This document shows, one piece after another, positions 4,700-58,980 of a DNA stretch of 64,000 nt. The notes beneath the pieces are model-generated. The model saw only the letters and a program-made list of their open reading frames with translations. It did no database searches and was not told the origin of the DNA. Position numbers and translations under genes: made by a program. This DNA comes from Ectocarpus siliculosus (lineage: Eukaryota > Sar > Phaeophyceae > Ectocarpales > Ectocarpaceae). The stretch is from positions 84,533 through 148,532 of the forward strand of contig FN648527.1 of NCBI GenBank assembly GCA_000310025.1. Reading direction: 5' to 3'. The number at the start of each line of letters is the position of its first letter. Within the stretch, counting starts at the first letter, position 1.

Positions 4700-5625
4700 A
4701 TGACGGAAAGAGAGAGAGAGTTGTTGGAAGAAAGAACGAAGAAAGCGGAAGCCGAGAGTGTGGAGTTACGGAGGAAACTTGAGGAGGAAAGGGAGCGCAG
4801 TTCAGCGGGAGACGCTACGAGAGATAGGGTGGATGGCGCTGGGTACGCGTCGGGGTATTATAGGGGTGGAGCAGCCGGGGTGGCGGACACCTTTGGAGCC
4901 GGGGGAGCGGCTACTTCTTTTCGAGATGGTCCAGTGCAACAGCAGTACAGGGACCGCAAGCCACCAGTGTACGACGGCAACTTCCCGCTCTTCAAGACGA
5001 TATTCGAGGTCTTCCTCGCCGGCGAAGATCTTGGGCACACACTCACTCCGCCGGCGAGTCCTGATGAACGCATCTGGCTCATCCACACATCCAGGAGCGA
5101 GAACATAAGATTCCACAGTGAGAAGCGTGTGCGTGATCACGAGCGTGCTTTCGATTACTTGAGGCGAGCCACGAAGGGGGCGAAATTCCAATCGACGATT
5201 CTTGCTGTAGGGAATGTGTCGGGGGCATGGGAGGCTGCCCAGGAGTTTTGTCTTCCGATGAGTAGCTCTGAGAAGGAGGCCCTGAAGTTGTCCCTCGCTA
5301 ACATGAAGATGCAGCTCGGAGAGGACCCGCAAGACTACTTTCTGAGGTTTAACAAAGTGCTGAATACGCTTCGCGCTGTCAACGGTTGTGAAATCCCGGA
5401 AAGTGAGGTCCTTGCGACTTTACGTAGAAGCCTCTCGGCAGACTACGAACAGGTCAAGATCGTGCTCATGCATGATCACACGCTCACACGCAGAAGCTTA
5501 GAGATTCTTGTGCGTAGCCACCACGTTGAGAAAAATCTCGGTGATCGTGCGCAGCGGACGGCCGCGCCGGCTAGCGATCCGCACGCTCTTCGTTTCGGCG
5601 GAAATTCACGGCCCAACGGTAACGG

Positions 5626-5656
<31 letters not shown>

Positions 5657-6874
5657 GGTGGTGGTCCGCAGCGGAGGACCGGTGGGTTTTCCCAAGGCAG
5701 ACAACAGGGTAGAGATGGACAGCAGCAGCCGGGGTGGGGAGGGGGAACTCAGGGAGAGTACAACGGGGGATATCGCCCGCAGCTGCAGCAGCCGCAACAG
5801 TCGTTTCATCAGCAGGCGCCGCAGCAGCAGTATCAACGGAGATTCCCTCAGCATTTTCCGCAGCAGTCGTTTCAGCAGCAGCAGCCCCAGGAGTTCACTC
5901 CCGCAATGGCGATGGGATTCGTTCCGGGTGGTCCCAGGGACCCCGGGCGGAACGCAGCGTGGCCGCAGGAGGCGTCCCCCATTCCCCCGGGATCACCGAT
6001 GTGCGCCGTGCCCATGTGTGGTCGCTGCGGTCATGTCGGGCACACGGCCATCATCTGCCAGGCTCCTCCGCGATTTTATGGTAGGTGTTCTATTTGTGGT
6101 GAATCCGGCCACACGGCGCGCAACTGCAAATTTAACACATCCAACAATCTGCAGCAGCCGCCGCGCCAACACGCGGCGGCCAACACGTCTCAGGTACCCC
6201 ACCTCAACGCCGTAATGCACCCACCTTACCAGCCTTTCTCGCAGCAGCCTTTCCCCCAGCACTCCCATCTTAACAGCGCGGAGCCGGGGTATTCGGCAAG
6301 TTGTGTAGACGGGTCGATAGCGCACCATTGGCCCGTGTCGGCGCCTCTTCCGCAGCAACACCTTGCCATGGTACATCAGGATGGTTCCAGCGGAGGTGTG
6401 CAGCCATGGCAGGGTTCCGGCGGCAGCGGCTATGGTGGTGTGCCCCAGCAGCAGGAGCCGCAGCAGCAGCTGCAACAGCAGGAGGGCCGCGCGTGGGGGG
6501 ATGCTTCCGGCGTGGATATACAGGTCAGTGGCGGTGAGGGTGAATGCGTTGATGGAGTAGGGGGGGGTGGTCATGCCGGTTCGTACGGCACCGTAGAGCC
6601 GGTAGGTCCCCCCCCCGATCGTAATGCTCTTCACGTTTTCTGCCAACACCGTCACCCTGTAGCGTATCCACCGGCCCCTTTCTCCACTTTGCTGTCGGCG
6701 ACTGGGCGTACCGACTGGTGGGTTGGTGATAGTGCCGCGTCTACCCACCGCACTAGCAGCACCGACTTCGTGTCGTCCCCGGTCGCCGCGATGGCCCCGG
6801 GCACCTCGACGGACGCAGCAGCGGTGGCGGCGGCGTCTTGCATCGAAAATCATGGGGGGGGATGTCATGTATGA
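4700..6874 (+). CDS. Gag-protease polyprotein of copia-type element
   Basis: 724-residue frame starting at the first ATG after the 5' LTR. Residues 1-35 are a charged coiled-coil. Residues about 85-280 match the copia gag fold (UBN2/retrotran_gag type), with a PPVYDGNFPLFK start and a conserved leucine-rich helical region. A run of 17 or more glycines follows near residue 309, then a glutamine/proline-rich linker. Two zinc knuckles of the CX2CX4HX4C form lie at C441-C454 and C464-C477; these bind RNA in gag proteins. Residues 673-683 contain W-V-G-D677-S-A-A-S-T-H, the copia protease active site (normally DSGAS), but the frame stops about 45 residues later, so the protease is a stub and probably inactive. 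The protein likely forms the particle shell and packages RNA for trans-mobilisation. The stop falls just after a G-rich tract at 6854-6861, so an ancestral frameshift there is possible. Confidence 0.85.
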
Positions 6875-10980: not shown

Positions 10981-11132
10981 ACTTCCCTGCCCAGCTAAAA
11001 TCTGGGTCTCCCCCGCTGCGTAGACGACGTGGTACTCTTGCACATTCTTTCATTGCCGGTACACCCCCCCAGGCCGCCAGACGACAGTCGGCGGGCTCTC
11101 GGCAGTGGAAGTAGGCCGTAGTCCAGGGTTAA
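10981..11132 (-). repeat. Direct repeat R2 flanking the integrase fragment
   Basis: 152 bases, about 70% alike to 12097-12245 by eye. It contains a G-run followed by TGTACCGG on the minus strand, similar to a polypurine tract plus LTR start. The integrase frame ends inside it. Confidence 0.75.
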
Positions 11133-12175
11133 GCGGAGAGGGATGGTCGGGCGGCAACGCCGACGCCCGTATCCATTTCGCGCCTCGTGAGCTCCTCCCA
11201 ATCTCCGTCCGGGTACTCCACACGCCAATAGGGGTCGCAGTAGTCGAAGACGTTGGCCTTGAAAACCTTGAGCTGTCCGTCGGTGTCGGCAGATTCTCGA
11301 CCAACTGGCGTCCCCATAGGAAAGAGCTGCAACGCTTGTTCCCTGGACGCTACTTCGCGTTCGCCCCGGGTAGGCGGTCCGGCGGGTCGTGGCGTGGCGT
11401 CCTTGCCGTGGTAGTCCTCGCATAGCGCGTGGAAGACGTCCAGCTGGAGTGGCGAGAAGCTGTCGCGGGCCTCATCCTCAGTCATCCAAGGCGAGAGGGC
11501 ACCATTTTGGTAACGGCCTTGGTACTCCCATGTCCACGTCGTCGTGGTACCGGTGCCGTATATAACCCGTCGGTCCACGAGCGTGTACAGCGGCACAGCG
11601 ACGACGGAGGTGTCGGCCAGGCCAAGGTCGGACGACCACACGAGATGCGCAACCTCGTCCTCGAACGGCAGCCGGAGGTCCTGCGGTCGCACGTGGTAGG
11701 GCTTGAGGTCGGGCGCTGCCACTTTGCGTCGGCGGATCCGGCGGCCGTTGAGTTGAACCGCGAAGCTTGGGCGGTTGTAGATGACGTTGGTGACCTTCCA
11801 CGGACCGGTGTAGTGGTCGTGCGTGAGCTTCGTGTGGTGACTGTCTTGGTGTAGCGTGTTAGCCGGTTCCTTGACGAGGACGGCGTCTCCGATGGCGGCT
11901 TTGGCTCCTGGTGACTCCCGAGCTACCCGGGCATTGTGGCGTACCCGCTGACGGTTCTGGGCCTCGTGGCGGTAGGTGAGGCTCTCCCGCGTCATGCGTT
12001 GTTGATCGGAGACAGTCCGCTCGAGTCCGTGGCCGAAGGAGCTGTTGTCCGCGGCATGGGAGGTGACGTCGATGTGGCTTCTGTGTTCCCAAAACCACTT
12101 CCCTGCCCAGATAAAATCTGGGTCTCCCCCGGAGAAGACGGCGCATCCTTTGAGACATCCTGCCACTGCCGGCAC
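11129..12175 (-). pseudogene. Gypsy integrase C-terminal fragment
   Basis: 348-residue minus-strand frame. The first ~30 residues are read through repeat R1 and are not pol. From about residue 33 the text matches the tail of gypsy pol: a basic stretch with arginine-rich ARVARESPGAK, then GDAVLVKEP, then the GPF/Y-type module TKLTHDHYTGPWKV, which in gypsy integrases follows the catalytic core and assists DNA contact. Downstream is an LYTLVDRRV stretch that could be a degenerate chromodomain, then a Tudor-like YWRVEYPDGDWEELTRREM near the end, a pattern I associate with stramenopile gypsy elements. The catalytic DDE core is absent, so no integrase activity is expected. Confidence 0.75.
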
Positions 12176-53900: not shown

Positions 53901-53910
53901 ATCGTGATGT

Positions 53911-53931
53911 ACCGTAGGTTGCATAAGATAT
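53911..53931 (+). repeat. Left terminal inverted repeat of the pogo-type element
   Basis: CCGTAGGTTGCATAAGATA matches the reverse complement of 58253-58271 exactly. The match also includes the flanking TA and the bases AT outside it. Confidence 0.9.
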
Positions 53932-54130
53932 CACACTTTCATTAGATACCACACCCCCTCAGAAAACGTACACAATACCACACCCGTGTGCTATTTTTTT
54001 CAGCCCCCCAAAAAACGTCATTTTATCACACGGTGACATAAGATACCACACCCCCTGAAGTTGGGCCGCATTAAATCGACGGAGCCCCTGCTTATCACAC
54101 GGTGTGACAACGTGAGGACAGAGATCACGA
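53932..54130 (+). promoter_or_regulatory. Left subterminal motif cluster
   Basis: GATACCACACCCCCT, AATACCACACCCGTGTG, TTATCACACGGTGACA, GATACCACACCCCCTGAA and TTATCACACGGTGTGA lie in 200 bases before the gene. Similar motifs are at the right end. They are likely transposase-binding sites and may overlap the promoter. Confidence 0.65.
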
Positions 54131-54154
54131 CCACACCACCTGCTCGCAAGAGCC

Positions 54155-57100
54155 ATGGAGGCGGACAATGTCGTGGAGGGTGGTGCAGTTAGGAACCCTG
54201 CTGAAAGCCCCGCGGCTCAGACTGCAGTGGGTAAGACTCCAGCGGCGGCCCCACGCTCCATAGCGTCCTACTTTCCACCCGCCCCGGGGGAACGTGGGGC
54301 TGCTCGGACGACTCCCTCAGCAGCCGCACATGACACCGCACGTACTGCTGAGGCCCGCTCAAAAGAATCTACTGCTACTGAGACTCCCACAGCACCGGCT
54401 GCGCCTGCCACCGCGGGTGCCGCCGAAACCTGCGAAGCAGAACCTACTGCTGAGAATCCCGCAGCACCCACACCCACACCCGAAAAGGCAGCTCTCCCGC
54501 CAACCACCAACACCCTGAGCGCGGCTACTGCTGAGAATCCTGCAGCAGCACCGCGCTGCGGAGAACCATCGTGCACCAACAAGCCCTTGTGGGCAGAGCC
54601 AGGGAAGGATATGCCGGAGTTTTGCGGCAGGCATGCGAAGTCTGGCGACGTCTACATCAAAATAAGGTGTGCGCAGAGCGTCTTGCAGTTTGCAGCACAT
54701 GGGTGTTTGTGAGGATTCTCATGGCTCAAGCAAACCAAAGAACATGCCACGCCTGATTGCCTGATCGATAACCAGATCGAAAAATAATGTGATTTTGACG
54801 TCGTGTCGTCGCGCTCGCCTCACTGCACATTGGCATGTACACACTACATTTACATGTAGTTCATATATTCTGGTGTGGGCGAAATGTTTACTGGATTGTT
54901 TTTGTCACACACACGACACGTTTCCGCATACCGTTTTTTGTGTTTGTGATGTTTCGGTAGGAAGACTGCGAAACCCATACCCAACACGTGCAAATATGTA
55001 CACATAACCTCGACAGCAGTTCGTGCCTGTTTGTGTGAGATACGAAATAGGTGCCGTCAGCTGCTCACCCTCTGTACCTTGCATGCGTGGACGCCATGAC
55101 TCTCAACCTGGTGGCCGTTGTCAGAGCTATCCGCTAGCCATCGTATTTTTGGTACGTTTGCCTGATGGTCGTTGGAGCGAGCGCATTGTTACAGATACTG
55201 CACTTAACGACACGTATGCTACATGTTTTGTTGCTTCCTCGAACTCATGCGCTTTTCAGGAACGTGCACCTGCCTGAAGCACCGACGACAGCAGCCGCAA
55301 CGGCGCCCGTCGGTGACGCCATGTTTCCTGGAGAGTCAGAGGAGTGGACAGATGGTTTCGGTGGGCGTCTCGACGGCACGCCGGCCGAGGGCAAGGGCAA
55401 GGGCAAGAGGAAAAGAGAGCCGCTGGAATTGGAGCCACCAAACTTCCCCATTAAGTTTGGTGGTGGCCAGAAACGCAAGCGGTACGATTTGGAATTCAAA
55501 GTAAACGCCATTAAGTACGCGACCATGCAAAGCCCGGGGGCGCAGGGGCCTAATGGAACCATCGGTGTGTCGTATGCGCAACGAGTGCTTGGGATTCCCG
55601 AGAAGATCACACTCTCTGAGTGGATAAAAGACAGAACAAAGTACGAGAAGCAGCTGGAACAGGCAGACCAGCTCGGGGCCAAACGGAAGAAAAAAGCCCG
55701 GAGCGTGAAGTCGTTCAACACGGGGAGGGTTAGGTCAAACGCTGAGGCCGAGCTCGAACTTCTCGACTGGATCAACGATGTTCGTTCGGAAGCCATCTCT
55801 GCCCGCGTCTCTACAAGGATGATCAAGAACAAGGCGGTATCGCTCAACTCGCTTTGGTTCGGCCCGAGGCCTGCAGCGAACGACCTGGAGGGCAGTAGAA
55901 AGTACCGCAACAAGCAGACTCACTGGTGCAGGAGGTTCCTTAGGAAGAACCGGTTGTCATTCCGGGCGGTTACCAGGCAAGGCCAGAAACTCCCTTCCGG
56001 GTGGCCTGCGATTGCCATGAAAGCCGTCAAGGAATGGAGGGCGCTTCGTCACGGAGGAATCGACGGTGGGGGAGGACGGAGCATGGGGGGGGCAACGAGC
56101 AGTGCGCCTTCGAAGCCACCTCTGTTGTTCAAGGAGGAGCAGAGCTACAGCATGGATGAAACTGCTGTGTGGATGGAGCCCGCTGGCACGTCGACCGTGG
56201 CGGTGAGTTCAATAGTGTTGCTTCGAGTCATGTGCCTGTCTGGTCGTTTCTTGGCATTCCGTGCAAACAGTGGGCATTGTGATGCAATATTTCTTGCCGT
56301 ACCTACTCAGTGTCCAGCCAGTAAGGCTAGACGACGTTGGTGTTGTGCTTATGCCGGGTTAGAAGTTTCTTACCATTCGCATCCATCATCGCTGTACTGC
56401 AAAACCCATACGTTACTTTGTGCGTGAAGAGCTGTCATTCTCATCTACAAAATCGACCTTTTTCGTCGCCTCTGCTTTCTCTATTGTTTTTTGCTTCTTA
56501 TTTTTGTCGTTCGCAGCACACCGGTCAGAAAGAGGTGGCCATCAAAACCGGTGGAAAGGAAAAGTTGCGGATCACTGCCGTGCTTGCAGCAAACATGAAG
56601 GGCGGCAAACTCCCGCCGCTGCTCATCTTCAAGGGTAAGCCTACGGCGCCGGGCAAAACCCCCGCTGCCAACAGCATCGAACGAGAGTTCAAGGTGGGCA
56701 AGGACAAGAAGGGGGTAGTATACCCTCAGAGCGTTGTGTACGCCGTGGACGACAAGGCGTGGCACACGCAGCGCGTCTTCAGAGATGTTTGGCTCCCCCA
56801 AGTGTGGAACCGGCGCCCGGGTCGCGAGGGGGTCCTGGGCAACTACCGTCAGCCGGACACGCTGCTATCGTGGGACGATTACACCGTGCACAAGACAGCC
56901 CTGTGCAAGGAAGCGATGGATAAGTCCAACACGACGCTGTTTTTTGTCCCCGGAGGCCTAACGCCCAAGATCCAGCCTTGCGATGGACTTATCAACAAGC
57001 TGTTCAAGTCCAACATTTCCAGGCTCTACGATGACCACATGGCCTCCACCGACGCCGTGCGCAACGACCGCGGCTACCCGGATCCCCCATCGAGGGGATT

Positions 57101-57452
57101 GCTCGCGCAGTGGGTGAAGAAAGCGTGGGATGAAGTGGACCCTGAGAGCATCCGTTCGAGCTGGAGGAAGGCTGGCATGACCCTTGCCTTCGATGGATCT
57201 GAGGACGAGGCGTGGGCCAACAAGGAGCTCAACTCCGACGCCCAAGGGAAACCACTTCGTGCAGACGGCGATGCGGCCGCTGCCGGCGTGGAGGAGGCTG
57301 GCCCATCGGAGGAGGGGGAGACGATGGCCGACTTGTTGGAGGTGTTGGAAATCGACGACGATGACAGCTCGGGAGATGGCGAAGGCAACGATGACTCGGA
57401 GGTTGAGGTCATGGCAGACTTGCCGGGGGCGGACGTTGTTTGCATAGACTGA
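54155..57452 (+). CDS. Pogo-type transposase with an N-terminal EsV-1-7 motif
   Basis: Exons 54155-54666, 55260-56202 and 56517-57452 join in phase (an AG/GTGTGC donor splits an arginine codon; GCG/GTGAGT then CGCAG/CAC at phase 0) to give 796 residues. Residues 33-40 (PRSIASYF) resemble a PCNA box. Cysteines at 141, 146 and 163 and histidine 166 fit C-X4-C-X16-C-X2-H, the EsV-1-7 repeat. A basic KGKGKRKRE follows, then a psq/CENP-B-type helix-turn-helix ([16 protein letters not shown]) and a second one with [20 protein letters not shown]. The DDE_1 catalytic core has D470 in SMDETAVW, D605 in WDDYTVH and D641 in [17 protein letters not shown]. The tail is acidic. It would act in the nucleus, cutting at the element ends and inserting at TA. 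If exon 1 is instead a separate gene, it stops at 54712 with 185 residues. Confidence 0.8.
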
Positions 57453-57459
57453 GGTGTCT

Positions 57460-57900
57460 TGTCTGGTATCTACCTACCGTAGTTGCATGCCATGGTCAAG
57501 TCAACCAAAGCTGCTATTCGAGCCAATTTGTCCTGGGTTTCATATGTTTCGGTAGTCGCTTGTCCTCTTGGTTTCTAGCTTTGGTTGATACGTAGCTGGC
57601 ACTTGCTTGCGTCCTATGTGGTTCCAGCTTGAGTGTTGGATGCAAGTCTTGCAAGTGGTTGCGTCGTCCAGGTACCTGTGTGCTGTCGTTTTGTCGCACA
57701 CAACACCGGCACAACCGCTCTGAGGTGTCGGTTCTACGTCTTCGTTGTGTACCTATGCGAAGAATTTCCAAAGGATACTGCGAAAATGCACGTGGGAAAG
57801 CATTTACGTGATGGAGTGGTGTGAGCCATCCTAGCTATCACACCTGTTTACACCCCTTGACGCCCTTTGTACGTGGGTGCCTCCTGTAAGCGCACCGCAT
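57460..57900 (+). other. 3' untranslated part of the pogo-type element
   Basis: No gene. It lies between the stop codon and the right subterminal array. Confidence 0.5.
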
Positions 57901-57904
57901 CACT

Positions 57905-58252
57905 CGAGCGACATTATTATCACACCCCCGTAGGTAGGGTCTTGTGGGCGCACTGCAACCACACGGGCGACATTATCACACCCCCGTCAGGCCGGGTCCT
58001 GTGAGCGCGTATCATCACACGGGCGAAGTTATCACACCCCCTTGTTATCACACCCCCTGTAAGCCGGGTCCTGTGAGCGCGCTTCATCACACGGGCGACG
58101 GTATCACACCCCCTTGTTATCACACCCCCTGTTGGTGAGACTCTGTGAGTACACTTTGTCACACGGGTGACATAAGATATCACACCCCCTACAGAATACC
58201 ACACCCGTGTGATAACTTTCGTCCTCCCGAAAATGTTATCACACGGGTGTGG
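57905..58252 (+). repeat. Right subterminal array of the pogo-type element
   Basis: About four ~64-base units, each with CACACGGGCGA, a TATCACACCCCC box (near 57918, 57974, 58029, 58042, 58102, 58115 and 58180) and CCGGGTCCTGTGAGCGCG. Boxes in both orientations stand next to the inverted repeat. Confidence 0.8.
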
Positions 58253-58271
58253 TATCTTATGCAACCTACGG
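58253..58271 (-). repeat. Right terminal inverted repeat of the pogo-type element
   Basis: Exact reverse complement of the left end, followed by TA at 58272-58273. Confidence 0.9.
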
Positions 58272-58273
58272 TA

Positions 58274-58980
58274 CATGTACGTGCGGGAAAACACAAAATG
58301 TCTGCAGAATGTGTCTGGTGTCTTGTGTCGCGATACACGCCCAGGGAGGCCATTTCACCATCTAGGCACCAAATCGCAATCTGAGACTTGTGCACAACGA
58401 GTAGCACTTTGCCCGAGCGCTCTCTTCTGCTACCCTTTCAATTCGTCGCCGGTGCCGTGATGCCGGGAAGCGAGTGTCCCCGCCCGAAAGCCCAGCCAGG
58501 CGCGATTTGTTTTGGTTCCCCACTGCTGTGTGCTCAGCAGCTAGCTCCGACTGCGATGTCAAGACACACACTGCACAGAGACAGGGAAACGACATGGACA
58601 TGGGGAGCGGGAGATGCACACACCACCGGGAGAGCCAGCGGTAGAGTGTGCCGTATACTATACGGCCGTCAGCTATCGGCGGAGGAAGCGAGAGGAGAGG
58701 ACAAGACGCGTCGTTTGATTGTGTCGTGCGTTTTGAAGAGCAGCAGGGTAGTTCTGTCATCAGCAAGAGCGAGGATAGAGGTCCCCCAGAGAAGATGGAG
58801 AACCAACTAACACACTGCCAGAAATTAATGATGCATGAACTGCTGGAAACCTCTGTAAATTGTGTGCGAGGGACTAGGGTGCCACAAGTTTGAGTTGCTC
58901 CGGATCAAAGCTCGAACCAGGGAAGAGAGGACGTTTTTGTTGCGCTACAACAGCAGCTGCTCATAACCCCCCTGGTATTC
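58274..58980. other. No recognisable gene
   Basis: Short frames only. Confidence 0.4.

What the first reader, a model, noticed from the sequence alone, without database searches (positions are those of the whole stretch)
54155..57452. EsV-1-7-type cysteine motif joined to a pogo transposase
Exon 1 ends with C-X4-C-X16-C-X2-H (residues 141, 146, 163, 166), the exact spacing of the EsV-1-7 repeat known from the brown algal developmental regulator IMMEDIATE UPRIGHT and from the phaeovirus EsV-1. Donor and acceptor phases join it in frame to a pogo-type DNA-binding and DDD transposase. A transposon carrying this motif would give a route for its spread between genomes and viruses, and suggests the motif can work as a nucleic-acid or protein-binding finger.
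Basis: partly seen in the sequence, partly recalled or inferred. Interest (0 to 1): 0.88.

Follow-up and report, generated by a model that had tools for sequence, protein, structure and literature searches.

The report
Brown-algal transposon with EsV-1-7 finger
A jumping gene in a brown alga carries, at the front of its cut-and-paste enzyme, the small cysteine motif known from a brown-algal developmental regulator and an algal virus; this is real, but the same fusion was already reported in print in 2025.

Summary
The window contains a complete 4,360-bp pogo-like Tc1/mariner transposon (53912-58271, TA duplications, terminal inverted repeats). Its three-exon gene encodes a 796-aa transposase. 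Exon 1 ends in one EsV-1-7 motif (PF19114, 32.9 bits, cut-off 25), joined in frame to a DDE_1 transposase with D470/D605/D641. Splice dinucleotides are unchanged in all 20 aligned rows, and 11 of 18 other copies keep the motif. [quoted passage not shown] Size, motif and a 217-bp MITE core with the same ends match; sequences could not be compared. Added here: a sister family lacks the motif; an older relict keeps it (second Cys lost); the splice donor sits at the repeat boundary; one subterminal repeat differs between the families. Nothing found supports passage through viruses, though that test was weak. Best reading: a host-derived zinc-finger-like accessory module; its binding role is inferred.

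The parts
53912..58271 (+). Whole element, 4,360 bp, pogo-like Tc1/mariner DNA transposon (matches published TcMar-2_Ec32, 4.4 kb)
   Evidence: inverted ends; other copies match up to the same ends
53910..53911 (.). TA target-site duplication, left
58272..58273 (.). TA target-site duplication, right
53912..53936 (+). left terminal inverted repeat
   Evidence: arms 53907-53936 / 58247-58276, 30 nt, 97% complementary
58247..58271 (-). right terminal inverted repeat
54155..54666 (+). exon 1 (residues 1-170 and two bases of codon 171)
54251..54274 (+). PIP-box-like PRSIASYF, residues 33-40; lacks the leading Q of the consensus
   Evidence: consensus from PMC5371812 passage
54557..54658 (+). EsV-1-7 motif, residues 135-168 (ligands C135, C140, C157, H160)
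54667..55259 (+). intron 1, phase 2, donor AAG|GTGTGC at the R-C repeat boundary
55260..56202 (+). exon 2: DNA-binding region and first catalytic D470
55741..55965 (+). HTH_Tnp_Tc5-like region, residues 332-406, below the Pfam cut-off (15.5 of 22.2 bits)
56203..56516 (+). intron 2, phase 0
56517..57452 (+). exon 3: DDE_1 domain (501-701), D605, D641, acidic C-terminus, stop
53930..54154 (.). 5' subterminal repeats (ATACCACACCC; ATCACACGG)
57837..58245 (.). 3' subterminal repeats (seven TATCACACCC; five TCACACGG)

Best explanation
This is a copy of a known brown-algal DNA transposon family, TcMar-2_Ec32, whose pogo-like transposase has gained one EsV-1-7 motif at the 3' end of its first exon. 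Shown here: gene structure, in-frame junction, catalytic triad, TA duplications, inverted ends, copies elsewhere in the genome with the motif, 217/218-bp MITEs with the same ends, and a sister family lacking the motif. Inferred: the motif came from the host's large EsV-1-7 family; the copied piece ended at a repeat boundary, where the Arg-Cys codons AGG-TGY resemble a splice donor (AG|GTGYG). Inferred mechanism: the transposase binds the ends through its helix-turn-helix region, cuts and inserts at TA; the C3H motif binds zinc and serves as an accessory finger for contacts with subterminal repeats, chromatin or another transposase subunit.
For: Pfam PF19114 above cut-off and DDE_1. 17 rows of the genome search cover the whole 3,298-bp gene at 97-100%, the window's own included. 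Motif intact by pattern in 11 of 18 other copies. MITE cores of 217 and 218 bp with the element's ends. Published description with the same length, MITE size and motif. Sister elements on C6 and C75 have the same two-exon N-terminus and an IxSFF motif but no EsV-1-7 motif; P0004 and P0006 show the same layout. An older relict (L069, 242-848) keeps the motif at 73-74% identity with dN 0.234, dS 0.734. Host gene L075 has a single-motif exon sharing CGEP and AEPG and ending in a phase-2 donor at the corresponding place.
Against: No transcripts, no zinc or DNA-binding data. The relict has lost its second Cys. 7 of 18 other copies have lost the motif or its frame: five by small deletions, one His to Arg (L016, whose 796-aa frame is otherwise open), one by an upstream frameshift. 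Five-model AF2 of the motif gave mean pLDDT 80.8 but little regular structure, and no PDB match was significant. L077 and L079 donors fall at other offsets (L079 in phase 0), so the donor argument is weak. The window's sequence could not be compared with TcMar-2_Ec32 itself (supplements closed).
Confidence: 0.62

Rival explanations
1. The motif is ancestral to the transposase clade and the sister family lost it.
For: Only one split was seen, so gain and loss fit equally well by count; the motif predates the young burst of copies, since a relict at about 79% DNA identity in this stretch has it.
Against: None of 21 database relatives shows it; five of them (P0002, P0004, P0006, P0007, P0008) include the end of exon 1 or the place of the junction. 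By eye, none of the 94 DDE_1 hits lies near a listed EsV-1-7 hit other than this family's copies and the C43 relict; these lists are capped (150 of 880, 388 and 458 candidates scored).
Confidence: 0.15
2. The motif is a passenger without function, kept because the copies are young and mobilised in trans.
For: Five of 18 other copies have the motif broken by small deletions, yet multiplied with it; copy-to-copy differences in the motif are few (5 synonymous, 7 non-synonymous summed over 18 comparisons), too few for a test. Near-invariant G and M are replaced.
Against: Against the older relict the motif has dN/dS about 0.32, and it aligns while much of the rest of exon 1 does not.
Confidence: 0.2
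3. Unspliced exon 1 makes a 185-aa protein with the EsV-1-7 motif only, acting as a repressor or competitor of the transposase.
For: Exon 1 reads on to a stop at 54710-54712.
Against: Splice signals are kept in all 20 rows; no transcript data.
Confidence: 0.06
4. The motif came from, or was passed to, a phaeovirus by this transposon.
For: EsV-1-7 genes occur in several viral genomes and horizontal transfer has been proposed for the gene family (PMC7457493 passage).
Against: Scans of IMG/VR contigs confirmed no relative of the transposase or of this motif, though they are insensitive; 150 or more host motifs exist in this genome as an immediate source.
Confidence: 0.04

Closest known systems
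TcMar-2_Ec32 with its MITE TcMar-N1_Ec32 (Ectocarpus; Genome Biol 2025, PMC12477816, passages seen)
   Same: Length (4.36 against 4.4 kb), Tc1/mariner class, N-terminal EsV-1-7 motif, MITE of 217 bp with the same ends
   Different: No difference found; sequences not compared because supplements could not be opened
pogo/Tigger-type transposases (Tc1/mariner)
   Same: DDE_1 domain, three Asp, Tc5-type HTH region, TA duplication, a PIP-like motif
   Different: EsV-1-7 motif; PIP-like motif lacks the leading Q; HTH below Pfam cut-off
EsV-1-7 / IMMEDIATE UPRIGHT family (PF19114)
   Same: C-X4-C-X16-C-X2-H and a score above the Pfam cut-off
   Different: Single motif in a transposase rather than tandem repeats; 32.9 bits against 65-81 for the 150 listed host hits; A147 and D165 replace near-invariant G and M

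Membership tests
EsV-1-7 motif (PF19114) | Profile match over the curated cut-off | tested here: met
   32.9 bits, cut-off 25
EsV-1-7 motif (PF19114) | Four ligand positions at C-X4-C-X16-C-X2-H | tested here: met
   C135, C140, C157, H160
EsV-1-7 motif (PF19114) | Zinc binding | not testable with these tools
   No solved relative by sequence; weak fold matches only
pogo-like Tc1/mariner transposon | DDE_1 domain with three catalytic Asp | tested here: met
pogo-like Tc1/mariner transposon | Terminal inverted repeats and TA target duplication | tested here: met
   left end TA-CCGTAGG in 18 of 20 rows (L024 lacks that end, L027 is cut by the locus edge)
pogo-like Tc1/mariner transposon | Tc5/CENPB-type helix-turn-helix | tested here: inconclusive
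   15.5 bits against a cut-off of 22.2; relative P0015 passes with 24.7; exon-2 model poor, pLDDT 46.6
TcMar-2_Ec32 | 4.4 kb autonomous element with N-terminal EsV-1-7 domain and a 217-bp MITE | tested here: met
TcMar-2_Ec32 | Sequence identity to the published consensus | not testable with these tools
   Supplement look-ups capped at 0

The most novel reading that the evidence does not exclude
The captured finger changed which DNA the transposase reads. Two families of the same transposase clade share one subterminal repeat (ATCACACCC) but differ in the second: TCACACGG in all five end regions examined from three motif-bearing elements, TCACCGG in all seven from five sister elements, with no exceptions. 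EsV-1-7 would then be a sequence-specific DNA-binding finger, and the transposon would offer its first natural binding site. The contrast rests on a single evolutionary split, motif absence was seen directly only near the C6, C75 and C43 sister copies, and the two MITEs fetched lack the second repeat, so it is not needed in cis for mobilisation.
Probability: 0.12. Interest if true: 0.65.

Novelty: already known. Interest (0 to 1): 0.3.

Why it matters
The EsV-1-7 family is large in brown algae and includes a developmental regulator, and its biochemical role is still only hypothesised (zinc-finger transcription factor, PMC12629598 passage). A transposase that has taken up one motif, next to a sister without it, gives a natural fusion in which removal of the motif can be tested against defined DNA ends. 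The fusion itself is in print, so the gain is in the comparison.

Tried and rejected
Passage through viruses: two scans of IMG/VR contigs confirmed no relative. They used single sequences, which find close relatives only, and did not recover any viral EsV-1-7 gene.

Other fusions of the motif with transposases: the protein database gave no candidate for the motif region alone and none of 21 transposase relatives carries it. Most of those are exon-2 or exon-3 models without exon 1, so the absence is partial. Pfam was run on P0001-P0008 and ten of the other thirteen; the last three (P0018, P0020, P0021) were checked only by pattern.

Intron-position argument for capture of a host exon: of seven short host stretches examined (L075-L081) clear donors just after a motif were seen in L075 (phase 2), L077 (phase 2) and L079 (phase 0), at offsets 35, 29 and 33 against 32 in the transposon. 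Suggestive only.

Literature: searches of the held library for EsV-1-7 (5 papers), IMMEDIATE UPRIGHT, transposase/zinc finger/domain capture in brown algae (0 papers), pogo with PCNA, phaeovirus with transposase (1 paper, listing only) and pogo domain shuffling. Passages, not whole texts, were seen of PMC12477816, PMC12993054, PMC7457493, PMC12629598 and PMC5371812. In one search one pattern was mis-written (it could not match ATACCACAC); one search replaced it.

Full report
What is there. The window lies at G000:C98:84533-148532 in a 189-Mb genome of 492 contigs. Around the given coordinates is a complete DNA transposon. Its ends are inverted repeats (arms 53907-53936 and 58247-58276, 30 nt, 97% complementary), flanked by TA; the core is 53912-58271, 4,360 bp. 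The gene has three exons, 54155-54666, 55260-56202 and 56517-57452, and encodes 796 residues.

The motif. Residues 135-168 match Pfam EsV_1_7_cys, E 5.7e-8, 32.9 bits, cut-off 25; residues 501-701 match DDE_1, E 8.5e-19; a Tc5-type helix-turn-helix is seen below its cut-off. The pattern C-X4-C-X16-C-X2-H occurs once in six frames of the window and on average 0.0 times in 20 shuffles. The motif is a divergent one: 65 host repeats chosen by spacing have G and M nearly invariant where this one has A147 and D165. The 150 host hits listed by the genome search score 65-81 bits (150 of 880 candidates were scored).

Copies. A DNA search of the genome gave 51 matching pieces; 17 rows cover the whole 3,298-bp query at 97-100%, the window's own included. 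I aligned the window, its duplicate L009 and 18 other copies (L010-L027). Donor 1 and both acceptors are identical in all 20 rows; donor 2 differs only by one exonic base in L015. The motif is intact by pattern in 11 of the 18 others. L012 has the motif's DNA but an upstream frameshift, L016 has His changed to Arg, and L019, L020, L021, L022 and L025 have small deletions in it. Frames without internal stops are seen in the window, L014, L016 and L027.

Already in print. PMC12477816 (Genome Biology 2025; [quoted passage not shown] In this genome the 21-base end TACCGTAGGTTGCATAAGATA occurs 91 times (50 forward, 41 reverse), its backward control 0 times. Two pairs of inverted ends that I fetched enclose cores of 217 and 218 bp. 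Length, motif and MITE agree; the sequences themselves were not compared.

Sister family and relict. A second family in the same genome (74-76% DNA identity over much of exon 3) has the same N-terminal layout: an alanine/proline-rich first exon with QQITSFF, then an intron, then GDMMFPGETEW, but no EsV-1-7 motif in the C6 and C75 copies read; database models P0004 and P0006 show the same. A relict at L069 242-848 keeps the 5' end and motif of the fused type: 73-74% identity in the motif, second Cys replaced, dN 0.234 and dS 0.734 against the window. So the fusion is older than the present burst of copies; gain in one lineage is the simpler reading, but only one split was seen.

How the fusion may have arisen. 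The exon-1 donor AAG|GTGTGC falls on the Arg-Cys codons where the next repeat of a tandem EsV-1-7 array would begin; host arrays commonly encode this as AGGTGCGG, itself donor-like. A host gene with a single-motif exon (L075) shares CGEP and AEPG with the transposon motif and ends in a phase-2 donor at nearly the same place; two other host stretches have donors at different offsets, one in another phase. This suggests, but does not show, capture of a host exon.

Ends. Both element ends carry dense short repeats: ATCACAC occurs 3 times in the 5' UTR, 12 times in the 3' end, once in the 3,298-bp middle, and 0.1 times per kb elsewhere in the window. ATCACACCC is shared with the sister family. The second repeat differs: TCACACGG in five of five end regions from three motif-bearing elements (window, L069 relict, L072), TCACCGG in seven of seven from five sister elements, never both; TCACACGG is absent and TCACCGG occurs 6 times in the other 59.6 kb of the window. 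For the C1 and C10 sister elements exon 1 was not read, so their lack of the motif is assumed. The two MITEs lack both forms of the second repeat, so it is not required in cis.

Other features. Exon 1 also has PRSIASYF (residues 33-40), matched by PKEITSFF and PQQIASCF in the sister proteins. A review passage gives the PCNA-binding box as Qxx[I/L/M]xxF[F/Y] and says Drosophila pogo transposase binds PCNA (PMC5371812). Here the leading Q is missing, so this is a lead only.

Verdict. A real, correctly read fusion in an active-looking transposon family, already described in one sentence of a 2025 survey. The most likely role of the motif is an accessory zinc finger; zinc binding, DNA binding and any effect on transposition are inferred. 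The virus route is unsupported by weak tests.

Noticed in passing
53930-54154 and 57837-58245: Dense subterminal repeats; the second repeat type differs between the motif-bearing family and its sister (TCACACGG against TCACCGG).
   Followed up: partly
54251-54274: PIP-box-like PRSIASYF near the transposase N-terminus, with counterparts in the sister family (PKEITSFF, PQQIASCF).
   Followed up: partly
L069 242-848 and 8697-4950: A relict 5' end of the motif-bearing family lies about 6 kb from a sister-family copy in the opposite orientation.
   Followed up: partly
4700-6874: 724-aa ORF with a copia-type gag match just below cut-off (26.5 of 27 bits) and a weak zinc knuckle: probable LTR retrotransposon.
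   Followed up: no
11129-12175 (minus strand): 348-aa ORF with a sub-threshold PTM/DIR17-like Tudor match, 18.9 of 27.2 bits.
   Followed up: no
P0008 and P0002: Database gene models in which a sister-type transposase is joined to a Noc2 piece (P0008) or a weak reverse-transcriptase piece (P0002); probably gene-model or insertion chimeras.
   Followed up: no
L019, L020, L021, L022, L025: Five copies carry small deletions in the motif, four with the same broken reading, as if a defective lineage multiplied in trans.
   Followed up: partly
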